From a virus, in the IMG/VR virus record IMGVR_UViG_3300010392_000264, positions 1 to 47,463 of that record: 47,463 nt of DNA, one strand, 5' to 3'. Under the pieces are notes generated by a model that made no database searches, was not told the origin of the DNA, and saw nothing but the letters and a program-made list of their open reading frames with translations. Shown piece by piece: positions 1,002 to 44,792 of this stretch; position 1 is the stretch's first letter, and every line of letters begins with the position of its first letter. Made by a program: the position numbers and the translations under genes.

Positions 1002-1427
1002 ATGTCCGCACCTAACATGCGCCGGATCATCGACACTGTATGCGGCGTCTACGGATACGACCGGCGACCTTTCCTGCGAGAACGCCGAGGGCCGCGCGAA
1101 CGAGCCGAAGCCCGGCAGATCATGTGCTGGATCTGCCGGAGCTACGGCTACCCGTTCAACGCCATCGGCCTCGCCGTCCGTCGCGATCACTCAACGGTCA
1201 TGTATTCCGCCCGCGTGGTCGAGGCTGACGACAGGCTGCGCTCCGTCGCTGCCGATATCGTCAAGATCATCGACGCACAGGAAGCGCCTGCCGCTGCTGC
1301 GGTGAAGGTAGCGCCGCCGGCACCGCCGCGAGAGGGCGCGACAGCATACAAGCCGGTTGACTGGGGCGCGTGGGCAGACCGCGTGCGCGTCCAGGAAAGC
1401 CGCAAATTGCACGCGAACAGGTGGTGA
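1002..1427 (+). CDS. Stand-alone DnaA domain IV (DnaA-box binding) protein
   Basis: A 141-residue protein whose residues about 34-75 match the C-terminal DNA-binding domain of bacterial DnaA. It has the AEARQIMCWICR helix, then the HTH, and the DnaA signature RDHSTVMYSARVV at 61-73. No AAA+ domain, Walker motif or domain I is present, so it could bind DnaA boxes but not hydrolyse ATP or unwind an origin. The C-terminal 55 residues are Ala/Pro-rich and unrecognised. A good Shine-Dalgarno site (AGGAG, 989-993) overlaps the ssb stop. It sits just upstream of the methyltransferase and replication genes. Roles could be recruiting host initiator to phage DNA, competing with host DnaA, or regulation; these are inference. 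Confidence 0.85.
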   Translation: MSAPNMRRIIDTVCGVYGYDRRPFLRERRGPRERAEARQIMCWICRSYGYPFNAIGLAVRRDHSTVMYSARVVEADDRLRSVAADIVKIIDAQEAPAAAAVKVAPPAPPREGATAYKPVDWGAWADRVRVQESRKLHANRW

Positions 1428-1431
1428 CGGC

Positions 1432-2124
1432 ATGACCTACGCCCGCAAGGAAGTCATCGGCGACGCGACGCTGTATCTCGGCGACTGCCTTGATGTCATG
1501 CCGACGCTTGGCAATGTCGATGCTGTCGTGACGGACCCGCCATTTGGCGTCGGTAACTTTGTCCAAACGACTGGCCGGATAATGGGGCGTGGCGCGAGTC
1601 GGGGGAAAGCCGTCGAATGGAATGAGAGCGCGCCGCCTGAGCGCTTTTTCGAGATTGTTAGGCAGATATCGCGTCACAGGATTATTTGGGGCGCAAATTT
1701 CTTTAACTGCTTTGAGCCCAACGGTGGCGCGATTGTCTGGGATAAGGCGCAGCAAATGCCGAATTTTAGCAAGGCCGACATTGCGAGCTGCACGCACTTT
1801 AAGAAGACAGAGATCGTTCGGATACCGTGGACGAATTTCACAGCAACACATCGTGCCGAAACCGACCATCCATGCGAACGCCCGGTTGATCTCTATGTTT
1901 GGTGTATACGGTATCTTCCGTTTTGCGGCACCATTTTAGATCCGTACTTCGGCAGCTGCTCAGTTGGCGTCGCCTGCGCCCGGCTAGGCCGCAAGTTCAT
2001 CGGCATCGAGCTGCACGAGCCGTATTTCGACATCGCCTGCCGCCGCATCGAGGACGCCTACAAGCAAGGCGATTTGTTCGTCGCGCCGCCGGCTAAGGCC
2101 ACGCAGGAGGCGATGGACCTATGA
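1432..2124 (+). CDS. DNA adenine/cytosine-N4 methyltransferase, copy 1 (altered SAM motif)
   Basis: A 230-residue amino-methyltransferase of the N6-adenine/N4-cytosine class. Catalytic motif IV reads DPPF at 35-38. The SAM-binding motif I block is C-terminal (DPYFGSCSVG, 170-179), which is the order of beta-class enzymes. The usual FxGxG is altered: the second glycine is a cysteine (FGSCS), so activity is uncertain. The first 24 and last 50 residues are nearly identical to the methyltransferase at 44001, while the centre is unrelated and AT-richer (29 G+C in the row 1681-1740 against 37 in 1981-2040). This points to replacement of the central part by recombination. The start follows a weak GGTGACGG site. 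Confidence 0.85.
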   Translation: MTYARKEVIGDATLYLGDCLDVMPTLGNVDAVVTDPPFGVGNFVQTTGRIMGRGASRGKAVEWNESAPPERFFEIVRQISRHRIIWGANFFNCFEPNGGAIVWDKAQQMPNFSKADIASCTHFKKTEIVRIPWTNFTATHRAETDHPCERPVDLYVWCIRYLPFCGTILDPYFGSCSVGVACARLGRKFIGIELHEPYFDIACRRIEDAYKQGDLFVAPPAKATQEAMDL

Positions 2125-6877: not shown

Positions 6878-7237
6878 GTGACTAACGAAGACCGCGACGA
6901 AGCGGGCCGCTTTTATAAGGGGCACAAAAGCGCAGGCCCAGGCCGGCCGAAGGGCTCGCGCAACAAGCTCTCCGAAGCGTTCTTTGACGACTTCTACGCC
7001 GACTGGAAAGAGCATGGAAAGACCGCGATCCAGGACGCGCGCCTGAAAGATCCTGTCGCCTACATGAAAACAGCGGCAAGCCTGATGCCGAAGGAACTGG
7101 CGGTCAAATCCGTAGAGGATTCACTGACCGATGAGCAGCTTGCCGAGTACATCGACGCTCTCGACGGAGAGCTTGAGCGCCGTGCGCGCGAAGTTGGCGG
7201 AGATTCAGGGCCGCCGGAGGGCGCGCCGGTTCATTGA
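6878..7237 (+). CDS. Terminase small subunit (putative)
   Basis: A 119-residue protein directly before the large terminase. The N-terminus carries the GRPKGSRNKL motif (about 22-31) typical of small-terminase-like phage proteins, then a helical region (FFDDFYADWKEHGKTAI, DPVAYMKTAASLMPKEL) and an acidic tail. It should recognise the packaging site and direct the large subunit. The start is GTG at 6878; ATG 6876 runs into a stop. Its 3' end overlaps the large terminase in another frame (56-107 nt depending on start). Confidence 0.7.
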   Translation: MTNEDRDEAGRFYKGHKSAGPGRPKGSRNKLSEAFFDDFYADWKEHGKTAIQDARLKDPVAYMKTAASLMPKELAVKSVEDSLTDEQLAEYIDALDGELERRAREVGGDSGPPEGAPVH

Positions 7238-7856
7238 CACCCTATGGCCCGACGATGGGCCGTATCGGCGTGAACTCTATCCGAAGCACCTGCAATTCTT
7301 CGAAGCCGGCAGGTTCTACAAGGAACGCGGCTTCATCGCCGGCAACCGCGTCGGTAAGACGCTCGCGGGCGGCACTGAGCTAACGTATCACCTGACGGGT
7401 GAATATCCCGACTGGTGGCCCGGTCGCCGCTTCGATGAGCCGACGCGCTGCATCGCAGCTGGCGATACATACGAGTCCACGCGCGACATCATTCAGAACA
7501 AGCTCTGCGGGCCGTGGGAAGACATCGGCACGGGCTTGATACCTGGCGACGCCATCATAGGCCGGGATCTGCGGGCGGGCGTCTCCAAGGCGATGAGCGA
7601 GGTCTACGTGCGCCACGTGAGCGGCGGCACGTCAACGCTCTCGCTGCGGTCATACGATCAGGGGCGCAAGCTGTTCCAAGGCGTCGAGCGGCATTTCTGC
7701 TGGTGTGATGAAGAGCCGCCGCTGGATATCTGGACGGAGATGCTAACCCGAACGATGGCGGTCGGCGATTTCGCTGGTGGGCTGATGATCGGCACGTTCA
7801 CGCCGTTGAGCGGCATGTCGGACGTGGTGTTGGCGTTCATGGAGGATGGTGACTAG
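7131..7856 (+). CDS. Terminase large subunit, N-terminal ATPase half
   Basis: A 241-residue ATPase half of a phage packaging motor. Walker A is GNRVGKT (71-77) and Walker B with catalytic Glu is WCDEE (191-195); GTFTPLSG (about 222-229) fits the coupling motif. It ends at TAG 7854-7856 exactly where the ATPase would pass into the nuclease, and the same frame resumes at once with GTG. Either two polypeptides form the motor or the amber codon is read through. GTG 7182 is an alternative start, with GGAGAG 10 nt upstream and a shorter overlap with the small subunit. The two halves together (487 residues) match a normal large terminase. Confidence 0.85.
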   Translation: MSSLPSTSTLSTESLSAVRAKLAEIQGRRRARRFIDTLWPDDGPYRRELYPKHLQFFEAGRFYKERGFIAGNRVGKTLAGGTELTYHLTGEYPDWWPGRRFDEPTRCIAAGDTYESTRDIIQNKLCGPWEDIGTGLIPGDAIIGRDLRAGVSKAMSEVYVRHVSGGTSTLSLRSYDQGRKLFQGVERHFCWCDEEPPLDIWTEMLTRTMAVGDFAGGLMIGTFTPLSGMSDVVLAFMEDGD

Positions 7857-8597
7857 GTGCCCAAGTTCCTCGTCAACGTCGGCTGGGACGACGTTCCCCA
7901 CCTAGCCGACGACGAGAAGAAGGCCCTAGCGAACGCATACCCGCCGCACGAGCGCGACGCCCGCATGAAGGGCATTCCGGCGCTTGGCTCCGGCGCAATC
8001 TATCCAGTGCCCGAGGATGTCTATCTCGTAGAGCCGCGCCCGCTGCCGAATTGGTGGCCGCGCGCTTACGGGCTTGACGTGGGCTGGAACAAGACGGCCG
8101 CGATCTTCGGCGCATGGGATCGCGACGCTGACGTGCTTTACCTGATCGACGAGCATTACCAGAGCTACGGCGAGCCGTCAGTCCATGCGGCTGCTATTCG
8201 GCGAAGAGCGGGCGATTGGATGCCCGGAGTCATCGACCCCGCGTCGATGGGCTCGAACCAGCGCGACGGACGCTCGCTCTTCGCGGAATACCAGGAACTC
8301 GGGCTACACCTGACCACGGCTCAGAACGCGGTCGAGGCAGGCATCTTCAAGGTTTGGGAGATGCTGAGCCAGGGCCGGCTGAAGGTCTTCAGCACGCTCG
8401 CCAACACGCGCGCCGAGATGCGCATTTACCGCCGCGATGATCGTGGGCGGGTTGTGAAGGAACGCGATCACTTGATGGACGCCATGCGCTACCTCGTGAT
8501 GAGCGGGCCGGCAGTCGCCGAGTACATGCCCGAGTTCATCGAGGAAGGCGACCGCGAGATGGCGACGTACAGCCGTGATTCGGTGACGGGGTATTGA
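7857..8597 (+). CDS. Terminase large subunit, C-terminal nuclease half
   Basis: A 246-residue RNase H-fold nuclease half. Acidic catalytic candidates are Asp74 (GLDVGWN), Asp127 (GVIDPAS) and Asp204/Asp208 (DHLMDAMRY). It begins WDDVPHL soon after the start, as in the linker of single-chain terminases of this type. It is in the same frame as the ATPase half, separated only by TAG. The GTG start has GGAGGA (7841-7846) 10 nt upstream, a well-placed ribosome site inside the end of the ATPase gene, so independent initiation or reinitiation is plausible. It cuts concatemers at packaging initiation and termination. Confidence 0.85.
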   Translation: MPKFLVNVGWDDVPHLADDEKKALANAYPPHERDARMKGIPALGSGAIYPVPEDVYLVEPRPLPNWWPRAYGLDVGWNKTAAIFGAWDRDADVLYLIDEHYQSYGEPSVHAAAIRRRAGDWMPGVIDPASMGSNQRDGRSLFAEYQELGLHLTTAQNAVEAGIFKVWEMLSQGRLKVFSTLANTRAEMRIYRRDDRGRVVKERDHLMDAMRYLVMSGPAVAEYMPEFIEEGDREMATYSRDSVTGY

Positions 8598-8812
8598 TGA
8601 TGGAGACGCAGCAGACAATCGACGCGCGCAAGGTCATGAAGGCCATGGAATGCTATCTCCGGCAGTGCGAGGAAGACGGTCGGAAGCCTGAATGTGGCTT
8701 TGTCGCTCCCGTCACCGGGCTGCGGCTGACCGTCGATGTCCTCCCGGAATGTGAACGCCGGCCGATTCGCGATGAGATGCCGCCGATCTGCTTTGGCGGG
8801 GCGAATACCTGA
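8597..8812 (+). CDS. Small hypothetical protein between terminase and portal
   Basis: A 71-residue protein with a helical N-terminal half (KVMKAMECYLRQCEEDG) and a beta-like second half (GFVAPVTGLRLTVDVLPEC); four Cys in all. No family recognised. ATG 8597 overlaps the terminase stop (TGATG), ATG 8600 follows directly, and its stop overlaps the portal start. Position suggests a head-assembly or packaging accessory, which is inference. Confidence 0.6.
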   Translation: MMETQQTIDARKVMKAMECYLRQCEEDGRKPECGFVAPVTGLRLTVDVLPECERRPIRDEMPPICFGGANT

Positions 8813-10995
8813 TGCTCGACCTTGAAGACGACATGGAGCCCATCGAAGGCCCCGGCATGGACGATATGCCGATGCACGAGATGGCTGAAGGCGAGGAAGG
8901 CGAACTAGAGCCGACGCCGCCGCTCACGCTCCAAGCCATCGTCGAGCACGCCATGAACGGCGGCAACGTCGCCGATCTGCTGGCCGACGAGTTCCTGAAC
9001 ACGACCGGCCAGGACGTGTTGCGCGACTTCGAGGAAGACTACCAGGACAACGCCGGCTGGCGGAAACAACGCAGCGACGCCATGAAGGCGACGACGCAGA
9101 CGGACGAGAAGAAGTCCACGCCCTGGCCCGGCGCTGCGAACGTCAAATATCCGCTGCTGACCACGGCATCGATGCAGTTCTCGGCGCGGACGTACAGCGC
9201 CATCGTCCCCGGCAAGACCATCGTTCGGGCGCAGACGACGGGCAAGGACCCGCAGAACGTCAAGCAGGCCCGTGGCGAGCGCGTCGCAGAGCATATGTCG
9301 CACCAAATCCTCGAAGAGATCGAGGGCTGGGAAGACGACATGGACGCGCTGCTGACGGCGCTCCCGACTGACGGCCAGCAGTTCAAGAAGGTCTATTGGG
9401 ACTTCGAGGAAGGCCGGCCGTGCGTGGAGCTTGTGCCGGCTGACAAGGTGACGGTCGCGCCGGGCACGCGGGACATTGAAACCAGCCCGCGCGTTACGGT
9501 GCAATTCGAACGCTTCCCGCGCGAGATCGAGGGGCGCATTCGTCTCGACCGCTGGCGCAAGCTGCCGGAAGGCCAACGCTACTACGACGTGGAAGGCGAC
9601 GAGAAGCACGAGCCCGTTGAGTTCCTTGAGCAGTACGCCTGGCTGGATCTGGACGAAGACGGCCTGTCCGAGCCGTACATCATCATCTGCGACCGCAAGA
9701 ATGGTCATGTGGCCCGGATTGAGCCGCGCTATGGCCTAGAGGACGTGCTTGCGAACGAGGCCGGCGAGATCGTCAGCGTCAAGGCGACGCCGATGCTGGT
9801 GCCATATCGCTTCATGCCCGATCCCGAGGGCGGCTATTTCGGCATTGGCTTCGGCAAGCTGCTGCATCCGATCAATGCGACGGTCAACAGCGTCCTGAAC
9901 CAGTTGATCGACGCCGGCACGCTGGCGAACACGCAGTCGGGCTTCATCGCGACGGGCTCGCTGACGCCGCGAGGCGGCAAGACGCGGGCGCAGATCCCGC
10001 AGATGAACGTCCTTGAGCCGGGCAAGTTCCACCCGGTCAACGCGACCGGCGCTTCGTTGCGTGATAGCATCTACCACGTGCAGTTTCCCGGCCCGTCCGT
10101 GGTGCTGTTCCAACTCCTTGGCCTGCTGATCGACGCAGGTAAGGAGATCGCGTCCATCAAGGATCTTGCCGGCGATCACCCGGCGACGATGCCTGCGACG
10201 ACGACGCTCGCCCTGATCGAACAGGGCATGAAGGTCTTCACGTCGATCCAGCGGCGTATCCATCGCTCGTTCCGCAACGAACTGCGGCTGATCTACAAGC
10301 TGAACAGCCGCTATCTGCCGCAAGAGAAGTACCTGCGGGTTCTCGACGACGAGCAGGCGAACGTCGAGGCGGACTACGCGGTCGATGACTTCGACATTGC
10401 GCCCGTCACCGACCCGGCGATGGCGTCCGATCAGGTCAAGATGGCGCGGGCGCAGTTCTTGATGCAGTTCATCGGCGCGCCTGGCGTGAACGTGCAGGCG
10501 ATCTACCAGCGCGTATGGGATGCGGCCGGCATCGAAAACCAGGACGAACTGATCGAGCAGCCGGACCCGGCGATGCAGCAGTTGCAGATTGCGCAGATGC
10601 AGGCGGCGGCGACGCAGCAGCACGTGGACAACATCACGAAGATTGCCGAGAGCGCCGCGAAGGTGGCGAAGGATCGGGCCAGCGCGCTCAAGGATCTGAT
10701 GGAGGCTGAGGCCATCGAGCCCGGCCAGCAGTCGGACGAGTTCGTCGGCATCATGCAGGCGCTAAGCGGCGCGTTGGGAGCAATGCAGGAGCCAATGAAT
10801 GGCGGAAGTCAGCAAGGATCAGTTGGCGGAATGGCTGGCGGCCCCGGCGGCGCAGGTGTTCCGGGATCAGGTGGTGGCGGCGGCGGACGGGATCGCGGAC
10901 CAGTTGGTGACGGGTTCCTGGCTCCGGGCGTCATCGGTGGAGCAAACGGCGCTGGCAGCGACGGCTTTGGCCTACCAGAGACAGGGCTGGCTTGA
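8812..10995 (+). CDS. Portal protein, P22 gp1-like
   Basis: A 727-residue portal, close to P22 gp1 in length. The core from about residue 75 to 560 has typical P22-portal stretches: STPWPGAANVKYPLL, QFKKVYWDF, EPYIIICDRK and FGKLLHPINATVNSVLNQLID. Residues 575-650 are Gln/Ala-rich helices, as in the portal barrel. The last 65 residues are Gly-rich and unusual; this stretch (from 10799) also encodes another protein in a different frame. It forms the dodecameric DNA channel at the head vertex, docks terminase, and later the gp4-like adaptor. The N-terminal 40 residues are very acidic. Confidence 0.92.
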   Translation: MLDLEDDMEPIEGPGMDDMPMHEMAEGEEGELEPTPPLTLQAIVEHAMNGGNVADLLADEFLNTTGQDVLRDFEEDYQDNAGWRKQRSDAMKATTQTDEKKSTPWPGAANVKYPLLTTASMQFSARTYSAIVPGKTIVRAQTTGKDPQNVKQARGERVAEHMSHQILEEIEGWEDDMDALLTALPTDGQQFKKVYWDFEEGRPCVELVPADKVTVAPGTRDIETSPRVTVQFERFPREIEGRIRLDRWRKLPEGQRYYDVEGDEKHEPVEFLEQYAWLDLDEDGLSEPYIIICDRKNGHVARIEPRYGLEDVLANEAGEIVSVKATPMLVPYRFMPDPEGGYFGIGFGKLLHPINATVNSVLNQLIDAGTLANTQSGFIATGSLTPRGGKTRAQIPQMNVLEPGKFHPVNATGASLRDSIYHVQFPGPSVVLFQLLGLLIDAGKEIASIKDLAGDHPATMPATTTLALIEQGMKVFTSIQRRIHRSFRNELRLIYKLNSRYLPQEKYLRVLDDEQANVEADYAVDDFDIAPVTDPAMASDQVKMARAQFLMQFIGAPGVNVQAIYQRVWDAAGIENQDELIEQPDPAMQQLQIAQMQAAATQQHVDNITKIAESAAKVAKDRASALKDLMEAEAIEPGQQSDEFVGIMQALSGALGAMQEPMNGGSQQGSVGGMAGGPGGAGVPGSGGGGGGRDRGPVGDGFLAPGVIGGANGAGSDGFGLPETGLA

Positions 10996-43547: not shown

Positions 43548-43864
43548 TGGCTGAGAAGAAAGAGCGCACGCCGTTGGAACTGCGCCGCCTCGACGCGCGG
43601 ATGCACACGGCAAGCCAGATCCACCACCGCGCACGGATGGAACACGTTCTGTACGGCGCGCTGCATCGGCGCATGGCGATCCTGCACCAGAAGCACGCGC
43701 GGCTTGCGTTCATCGACGTGCAGCACCTCACGCAACCCGATCCGTCCGCCGCTCACGGGGCCGCCTCTCCCTCGGCCGAAGCGCGGCGCACCTCCCGCAA
43801 CTGCGGCCCGGCGGGCGATACGTCTCCTGCCGGGCCGGATTTTCACGGGACTTCCGACACATGA
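43547..43864 (+). CDS. Small basic protein
   Basis: A 105-residue protein: a His/Arg-rich helical first half (ELRRLDARMHTASQIHHRAR, LHRRMAILHQKHARLAFI) and a disordered Ser/Pro/Gly tail. It may bind nucleic acid through its basic helix; that is inference. Coupled at both ends. Confidence 0.5.
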   Translation: MAEKKERTPLELRRLDARMHTASQIHHRARMEHVLYGALHRRMAILHQKHARLAFIDVQHLTQPDPSAAHGAASPSAEARRTSRNCGPAGDTSPAGPDFHGTSDT

Positions 43865-44004
43865 TCGGCGCCCGCGTCCCCACCCGGCGCGCCGTAGCCC
43901 AGGCCGGCTGTTCGCCCCTCGTCGGTCGGCCTGGGCGTTCCAAGACGTTCTTCAACGACGTGATCGCCGTCTTCCGGGCCGGCGGGAAAGCGATGGGGCG
44001 ATGA
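43861..44004 (+). CDS. Very small basic protein (47 residues)
   Basis: A 47-residue basic protein (RRAVAQAGCSPLVGRPGRSK, FFNDVIAVFRAGGKAMGR). It fills the gap before the methyltransferase with ATGA overlaps at both ends (43861-43864 and 44001-44004), the main reason to accept it. Confidence 0.5.
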   Translation: MIGARVPTRRAVAQAGCSPLVGRPGRSKTFFNDVIAVFRAGGKAMGR

Positions 44005-44792
44005 CCTACGCCCGCAAGGAAGTCATCGGCGACGCGACGCTGTACCTGGGCGACTGCCTGGAAGTCATGCCGGCGCTGCCCGATGCCGCTATCGACATGA
44101 TTTGGACAGACCCGCCGTATGGGCACAGCAATCATGATGGCGACTGGAACTCGCGTCTAAACGAAGTTCGCGGCATCGAGGGCAAGCCGATTGCAAACGA
44201 TGATGCGGATGGCATGCGCCGCGTCGTTGACGGCATGCTGGTCGAGGCAAGCAGGGTTCTAAAGCCCGACTGCTGCTGCTGCTGCTGCTGCTGCGGCGGC
44301 GGCGGTCCAAGGCCGACATTCGCGTGGGTAGCGGATCGCATGGACCGCGATGGACTGACATTCTTTCACAGCGTCATCTGGGACAAGAAGAACCCCGGCC
44401 TCGGATGGCGCTACCGGCGTCAGCACGAGATGGTCATGGTCTCGCACCGTGCCGGCGGAAAGCTGTCTTGGGCCGACCAAAACGTTACCGCGCGGAATGT
44501 CTTCTCGCTTATGCCACCGCGCGAACGCGAACACCCTAACGAAAAGCCGTTAGGCCTCGTCGACCACTTCATCCGACTGCATACCGTCTACGGCGATATC
44601 GTTTGCGACCCCTTCATGGGCAGCGGCACGACTGGCGTTGCGTGCGCCAAGCTCGGCCGCAAGTTCATCGGCATCGAGCTTCACGAGCCATACTTCGACA
44701 TCGCCTGTCGCCGCATCGAAGACGCCTACCGCCAGCCGGACATGTTCATCGCTCCGCCCGCCAAGGCGACGCAGGAGGCGATGGACCTATGA
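44001..44792 (+). CDS. DNA adenine/cytosine-N4 methyltransferase, copy 2
   Basis: A 263-residue amino-methyltransferase with DPPY at 37-40 (motif IV) and an intact SAM site DPFMGSGTTG at 203-212 (motif I), the beta-class order. The central region includes an eight-Cys, four-Gly run (91-102) encoded by a TGC repeat. The first 24 and last 50 residues match copy 1 (1432). Modification would protect phage DNA from restriction or mark it; the target is unknown. The start overlaps the previous small gene. Confidence 0.92.
   Translation: MTYARKEVIGDATLYLGDCLEVMPALPDAAIDMIWTDPPYGHSNHDGDWNSRLNEVRGIEGKPIANDDADGMRRVVDGMLVEASRVLKPDCCCCCCCCGGGGPRPTFAWVADRMDRDGLTFFHSVIWDKKNPGLGWRYRRQHEMVMVSHRAGGKLSWADQNVTARNVFSLMPPREREHPNEKPLGLVDHFIRLHTVYGDIVCDPFMGSGTTGVACAKLGRKFIGIELHEPYFDIACRRIEDAYRQPDMFIAPPAKATQEAMDL
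44271..44294 (+). repeat. (TGC)8 trinucleotide repeat inside the methyltransferase
   Basis: Eight perfect TGC units, coding for eight Cys, are followed by GGC-GGC-GGC-GGT for four Gly. Slippage here would add or remove whole residues without a frameshift. I recall a similar Cys-then-Gly run in other phage methyltransferases of this type, so it may be structural rather than accidental. Confidence 0.9.

What the first reader, a model, noticed from the sequence alone, without database searches (positions are those of the whole stretch)
7131..8597. Large terminase split by a single in-frame amber codon with a ribosome site for the second half
The ATPase half (Walker A GNRVGKT, Walker B WCDEE) ends at TAG 7854-7856 and the nuclease half continues in the same frame from GTG 7857. 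GGAGGA sits 10 nt before that GTG. In the related terminases I know this is one chain. Options are a true two-subunit motor by reinitiation, amber suppression giving a fused form, or an assembly error. TAG ends other genes here (for example ssb, 988-990), so global recoding is unlikely.
Basis: partly seen in the sequence, partly recalled or inferred. Interest (0 to 1): 0.75.

Follow-up and report, generated by a model that had tools for sequence, protein, structure and literature searches.

The report
Packaging motor gene split in two
In this uncultured phage the gene for the DNA-packaging motor is cut into two neighbouring genes, and many relatives carry a cut at the same loop of the protein, so it is most likely a real and recurrent two-piece motor rather than a sequencing mistake.

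Summary
TAG 7854-7856 separates a 241-aa ORF from a 246-aa ORF in the same frame. Pfam and AlphaFold2 place the cut inside the ATPase domain, in the loop before its last strand and lid, so the second piece is 'lid + nuclease', not the bare nuclease. The same TAG is in two further contigs, near-identical to the window and perhaps from the same site. No intron, no phage tRNA and no second terL was found, and TAG ends other genes. The new result is that the break is recurrent. Of 223 non-redundant relatives, 74 are split at this loop. Their junctions are mostly stop/start overlaps (ATGA and the like) or spacers up to 1.1 kb holding other ORFs. The loop is also the largest insertion hotspot in the one-chain relatives. 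On the tree the split state changes at least 15 times, and 26 times if only gains are allowed. Walker and nuclease residues are kept, and both halves show dN/dS of about 0.03-0.17 in split lineages. Best reading: a gene-in-pieces large terminase, with TerL-C made by termination-reinitiation and the halves assembling without a peptide bond. Assembly in trans is inferred, not shown. For the window itself, selection could not be tested for want of close relatives.

The parts
7131..7856 (+). terL-N: 241-aa ORF, main part of the TerL ATPase (start ATG 7131; GTG 7182 is a possible later start)
   Evidence: Terminase_6N E 4.4e-9; phrog_31467 E 9.5e-56
7341..7361 (+). Walker A GNRVGKT (residues 71-77)
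   Evidence: K76 kept in 71 of the 72 split relatives with data
7701..7715 (+). Walker B region WCDEE (residues 191-195)
   Evidence: D193 and E194 kept in 74 of 74 split relatives
7841..7846 (+). GGAGGA, Shine-Dalgarno-like site for the second ORF
   Evidence: 5-nt match scored
7854..7856 (+). TAG stop codon ending terL-N, in the variable loop between helix 231-237 and strand 245-250
7857..8597 (+). terL-C: 246-aa ORF (GTG start), last ATPase strand + lid + RNase H-like nuclease
   Evidence: Terminase_6C E 8.7e-14; P22 nuclease 4dkw
7884..7904 (+). WDDVPHL, conserved ATPase-domain motif carried by terL-C
7980..8513 (+). nuclease domain (about residues 284-461), acidic residues D316 and D446
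6878..7237 (+). upstream ORF, candidate small terminase by position; overlaps the start of terL-N
   Evidence: phrog_8771, unknown function; role inferred from position
8594..8812 (+). 72-aa ORF of unknown function between terL-C and portal, overlapping both ends
   Evidence: no PHROG match
8812..10995 (+). portal protein gene
   Evidence: phrog_1216 E 4.6e-28

Best explanation
The window carries a gene-in-pieces large terminase. One mRNA is read as terL-N (residues 1-241, Walker A/B and most of the ATPase fold); the ribosome stops at TAG 7854-7856 and starts again at the adjacent GTG 7857, helped by GGAGGA, to make terL-C (last ATPase strand, lid, nuclease). The two chains assemble without a peptide bond into one TerL protomer, tolerated because the cut is in a length-variable loop. 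Shown: the ORFs, the stop, domain and motif content, absence of a second terL, recurrence in relatives, purifying selection on both halves in split relatives. Inferred: reinitiation, assembly in trans, motor function, and that the window's own copy works. In the window the in-frame TAG looks like a single-step fission; in relatives frameshifts or inserted genes made similar cuts.
For: 74 of 223 non-redundant relatives are split at the same loop, including prophage loci in isolate genomes such as Phenylobacterium deserti, Sphingomonas melonis, Kushneria aurantia, Acetobacter musti and Vibrio galatheae. Start codon found for terL-C in 71 of 76 split rows, 45 of 71 within 12 nt of the terL-N stop, 25 of 71 an exact 4-nt overlap. 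The loop is the most insertion-prone point in 70 aligned rows: 54 of 70 have an insertion after residue 240, up to 28 aa. Walker B D/E and nuclease D316 kept in 74 of 74 split rows. Of 16 pairs of split relatives tested, those with finite non-zero dS gave dN/dS 0.03-0.17 per half, apart from one half with no amino-acid change (dS often near saturation). Other genes sit between the halves in some relatives. One terL only in the window. Fused model pLDDT 90, cut in a loop at 238-244; P74-26 ATPase domain spans residues 34-290. Precedents that split phage enzymes work: nrdA of Aeh1, gp43A/B (PMC2988022 passages).
Against: No protein or ribosome data. The window's lineage is a lone long branch (nearest about 58% identity, no well supported clade), so selection on its own halves cannot be tested and its TAG could be young. 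GTG is a weak start. SD strength alone does not distinguish: 44 of 149 one-chain relatives also have a start codon with an SD-like site somewhere in the loop. 44 of 74 split relatives could in principle also be fused by a frameshift and 5 by read-through of one stop. 5 of 76 rows have no ATG/GTG/TTG start for terL-C; one of these, L246, was later dropped as a probable error.
Confidence: 0.8

Rival explanations
1. Amber read-through: the host or phage suppresses TAG 7854-7856 part of the time and the fused 488-aa TerL is the working form.
For: In the window the halves are in one frame with one stop, so read-through would restore the normal chain; 5 of 74 split rows have this arrangement.
Against: TAG ends ssb, the tail-spike gene and two other ORFs here; no tRNA in the phage; 25 of 74 split relatives cannot be fused by one recoding event; the stop types at this loop are mixed.
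Confidence: 0.07
2. Nonsense mutant or defective phage: the population sampled carries a dead terL.
For: The stop may be young; no close relatives exist to test selection.
Against: Portal, major head and tail-spike genes are open and match known families; the same stop is in three contigs; it falls in the one loop where relatives are split again and again.
Confidence: 0.09
3. Assembly or sequencing error at 7854-7856.
For: Contigs are near-identical and may share reads or site. One relative, L246, does look like a homopolymer error.
Against: Three contigs agree; a substitution creating TAG directly before a start codon, exactly in the recurrent loop, is an unlikely error.
Confidence: 0.03
4. 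The halves are joined after all by RNA or protein splicing (intron or split intein).
For: TerL genes of other phages carry group I introns (PMC11878797, PMC4246154) or inteins (PMC7156551, PMC3670811); two split relatives have intein-sized in-frame inserts at Walker A.
Against: No extra sequence at the window's junction: the fused loop of 25 positions is near the low end of the 24-53 in one-chain rows. No Rfam match in the window region or in 20 split loci, chosen mainly for long spacers. Only terminase domains in the window's Pfam scan.
Confidence: 0.01

Closest known systems
One-chain P22/D6E/P74-26-type large terminases (Pfam Terminase_6N + Terminase_6C)
   Same: Domains, order, Walker motifs, nuclease acids, predicted fold (P22 nuclease 4dkw Z 25.5; P74-26 ATPase Z 21)
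   Different: Here the chain is cut in two inside the ATPase domain
Genes-in-pieces phage enzymes: Aeh1 NrdA-a/b, gp43A/43B DNA polymerase, T4 topoisomerase gp39/60 (PMC2988022 passages; PMC3653736 passages)
   Same: An enzyme encoded by two adjacent ORFs with no splicing; endonuclease insertion is one route, and one relative here (L132) has an HNH/NUMOD4 gene between the halves
   Different: Those are replication or metabolism enzymes; here it is the packaging motor, and the same loop was cut many times
phiPDS1 (Parabacteroides phage) large terminase in two CDS (PMC10773633 passages)
   Same: Two CDS for the two domains
   Different: A single case that its authors left open as codon table or assembly; relation to this family and cut site not tested
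TerL genes with group I introns (Bastillevirinae, PMC11878797; Lelliottia phage phD2B, PMC4246154)
   Same: terL in two or more ORFs
   Different: Those are shown (Bastillevirinae) or suggested (phD2B) to be spliced; no intron found here

Membership tests
Terminase_6-type large terminase (TerL) | ASCE ATPase domain with Walker A and B | tested here: met
   PF03237 match to the first ORF; motifs; P74-26 ATPase structure aligns to residues 34-290 of the fused model, Z 21
Terminase_6-type large terminase (TerL) | C-terminal RNase H-like nuclease with acidic residues | tested here: met
   PF17289; P22 nuclease 4dkw, sequence E 7.9e-19, Z 25.5
Terminase_6-type large terminase (TerL) | ATPase and nuclease on one polypeptide | tested here: not met
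   TAG 7854-7856
Genes-in-pieces (split gene without splicing) | two ORFs collinear with one ORF of relatives, nothing lost | tested here: met
Genes-in-pieces (split gene without splicing) | no intron or intein joins them | tested here: met
   no Rfam match, no insert, only terminase domains
Genes-in-pieces (split gene without splicing) | both products made and assemble into an active enzyme | not testable with these tools
   needs biochemistry
Amber-recoding phage | TAG read as an amino acid genome-wide, often with a suppressor tRNA | tested here: not met
   TAG ends ssb and tail-spike genes; no tRNA found

The most novel reading that the evidence does not exclude
One loop of the viral packaging ATPase is a natural breakpoint at which the motor has been cut into separately made ATPase-core and lid-nuclease subunits dozens of times, and which also serves as a docking place for small accessory genes; the split may let phages set the ratio of motor core to cutting subunit, for example to limit premature cleavage.
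Probability: 0.3. Interest if true: 0.78.

Novelty: new variant of a known kind. Interest (0 to 1): 0.62.

Why it matters
TerL is treated as a universal single-chain marker and motor; phylogenies, gene callers and mechanistic models assume this. A family in which about a third of sampled members are cut inside the ATPase domain is a ready-made set of natural split motors for testing how the ATPase sheet, lid and nuclease must be connected for translocation and cutting. It also warns that 'truncated' terL ORFs are often not pseudogenes.

Tried and rejected
Global amber recoding: rejected. Introns: none found. Second intact terL in the window: none. Idea that the split lets halves be swapped more freely: N and C distances agree equally well in split and one-chain rows (Mann-Whitney p 0.17), not supported. 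Portal-based search for closer relatives: only 2 of the 78 other portal loci examined hold this TerL nearby, both one-chain. Recalled Tad2-like identity of an ORF between the halves in L271/L274: not supported by Pfam; PHROGs gives phrog_1048, unknown function. The small ORF family between halves in Halomonas-group prophages: AF2 model weak (pLDDT 69), not pursued; no match in the phage collection. Rows dropped: 8 loci at contig ends (L034, L071, L235, L291, L304, L305, L310, L346), L041 (second frameshift), later L246 (1-nt homopolymer difference from a 95% identical one-chain row) and L264 (second break). One search, searched with the fused chain, under-samples splits; the half-ORF searches found more. 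Literature: no report of recurrent unspliced TerL fission in my 10 searches, which cover only open-licence PMC papers.

Full report
What is there. The window is a phage genome closed by a 127-nt direct terminal repeat. Its only large-terminase locus is 7131-8597. One reading frame holds two ORFs separated by TAG 7854-7856; the second starts at GTG 7857 with GGAGGA at 7841-7846. The same TAG is in two further contigs, which are almost identical to the window and may come from the same site.

Where the cut lies. Pfam Terminase_6N matches the first ORF and Terminase_6C the second, but read through, 6N continues to residue 294. An AlphaFold2 model of the read-through chain (pLDDT 90.2) has the cut between helix 231-237 and strand 245-250. 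The P74-26 ATPase domain aligns to residues 34-290 (Z 21, rmsd 2.6, 213 residues) and the P22 nuclease to 284-470 (Z 25.5, rmsd 2.1, 185 residues). So the second ORF carries the last ATPase strand, the lid region and the nuclease (the name 'lid' is recalled from published terminase structures). The cut point is the most insertion-prone place in a 70-row alignment of 69 one-chain relatives plus the window: 54 of 70 rows have an insertion after residue 240, up to 28 aa.

Recurrence. Searches with the fused chain, the halves and half alignments (with L082-L084) gave 335 classified loci: 219 one-chain, 106 split, 10 with one half only (a few are the same contig under two locus ids). Eight of the 106 are contig-end artefacts and one (L041) has a second frameshift. 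After clustering at 93% identity 225 rows remain, 76 split. Two of these were then dropped: L246, a 1-nt homopolymer difference from a 95% identical one-chain row, and L264, with a second break. This leaves 74 of 223. Breaks elsewhere in the gene were looked for in all 225 rows: six stop hits, all at residues 7-15 before the likely start; that screen missed L264. Two rows, L118 and L130, have in-frame inserts at Walker A that look like inteins. Among rows from bacterial and archaeal genome records 22 of 61 are split, before the two drops, both of which are from that set.

Junctions. A start codon for terL-C was found in 71 of 76 split rows: 46 ATG, 19 GTG, 6 TTG. In 45 of 71 it lies within 12 nt of the terL-N stop, and in 25 of 71 it is an exact 4-nt overlap of the ATGA type. 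The rule that picked the start prefers codons near the stop, so these counts are somewhat favoured by it. SD-like matches of 4 or more are seen at 28 of 71 chosen starts against 15% of 756 internal start codons, but 44 of 149 one-chain rows also have such a site somewhere in the loop. Fusion by one recoding event is impossible in 25 of 74 split rows (19 in another frame without overlap, 6 with more than one in-frame stop), conceivable by frameshift in 44 and by read-through in 5, the window among them.

What sits between the halves. Twenty split rows, nearly all with long spacers, were examined. L132 has an HNH_3/NUMOD4 endonuclease ORF. Halomonas-group prophages and related contigs have a small-ORF family (9 members aligned), in several cases overlapping the stop of terL-N and the start of terL-C. 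L271 and L204 carry further ORFs matching PHROGs of unknown function. No Rfam family matched in 20 such loci or in the window region.

Evolution. On a quick 225-row tree the split/one state changes 25 times against a shuffled mean of 63. Without the two dropped rows it changes 23 times, or 15 if branches below 95 SH-aLRT are collapsed; gains alone need 26 and losses alone 41. The state is therefore inherited but recurrent, and fission from one chain is the cheaper direction. The root was not inferred. The window is a lone long branch, so its split may be its own event.

Function. Walker B D193/E194 and nuclease D316 are kept in 74 of 74 split rows and K76 in 71 of 72 with data. Of 16 pairs of split relatives tested for dN/dS, three were identical or nearly so; the others gave 0.03-0.17 per half where dS was finite. 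dS is often near saturation, so the values are rough. This argues that both halves are working genes in split lineages. It cannot be tested for the window itself.

Known or new. Split phage enzymes that work are known (NrdA of Aeh1, gp43A/B; passages of PMC2988022, and PMC3653736; the primary Aeh1 paper was seen only in reference lists). TerL with introns or inteins is known (passages of PMC11878797, PMC4246154, PMC7156551, PMC3670811). A two-CDS TerL was noted in phiPDS1 as a possible codon-table or assembly matter (PMC10773633 passages). I found no report of recurrent unspliced fission at one loop in my ten searches. Among deposited phages only MW202785.1 was seen to be split: it matched as two annotated ORFs (60 of 424 records listed), and the listed rows showed no further case that I recognised, though those rows were not opened one by one.

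Verdict. A real feature, most likely a two-piece large terminase made by reinitiation: a new variant of a known kind (genes-in-pieces), with the recurrence at one loop of the packaging ATPase as the surprising part.

Noticed in passing
L118:1011-2483 and L130:776-2449: terL-N of two split relatives has an in-frame insert of about 0.8-0.9 kb at the Walker A site, the size and place of an intein.
   Followed up: partly
L277:2362-2583, L281, L207, L214, L204, L272, L275, L274, L271: A small-ORF family of 64-86 aa lies between the terL halves of Halomonas-group prophages and related contigs; no match in the phage collection for L277.
   Followed up: partly
L132:1983-2504: HNH_3/NUMOD4 homing-endonuclease-like ORF between the two terL halves, a possible route to fission.
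   Followed up: partly
L103:2939-3001 (also L124, L129, L151): terL-C seems to lack ATG/GTG/TTG before the conserved start of the half; an ATT-type start or another device may be used.
   Followed up: no
window 1357-2124 and 43704-44792: Two partly repeated ORFs (repeats 1432-1519/44001-44088 at 89% and 1925-2132/44593-44800 at 81%); the first matches DNA methyltransferases.
   Followed up: no
L105:2647-2973: A 108-aa open frame on the opposite strand covers most of the 292-nt spacer between the terL halves and runs into terL-N.
   Followed up: no
phrog_31467 and phrog_5653: PHROGs holds separate families matching residues 18-264 ('unknown function') and 286-458 of this TerL, perhaps because TerL is in pieces in their members too.
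   Followed up: no
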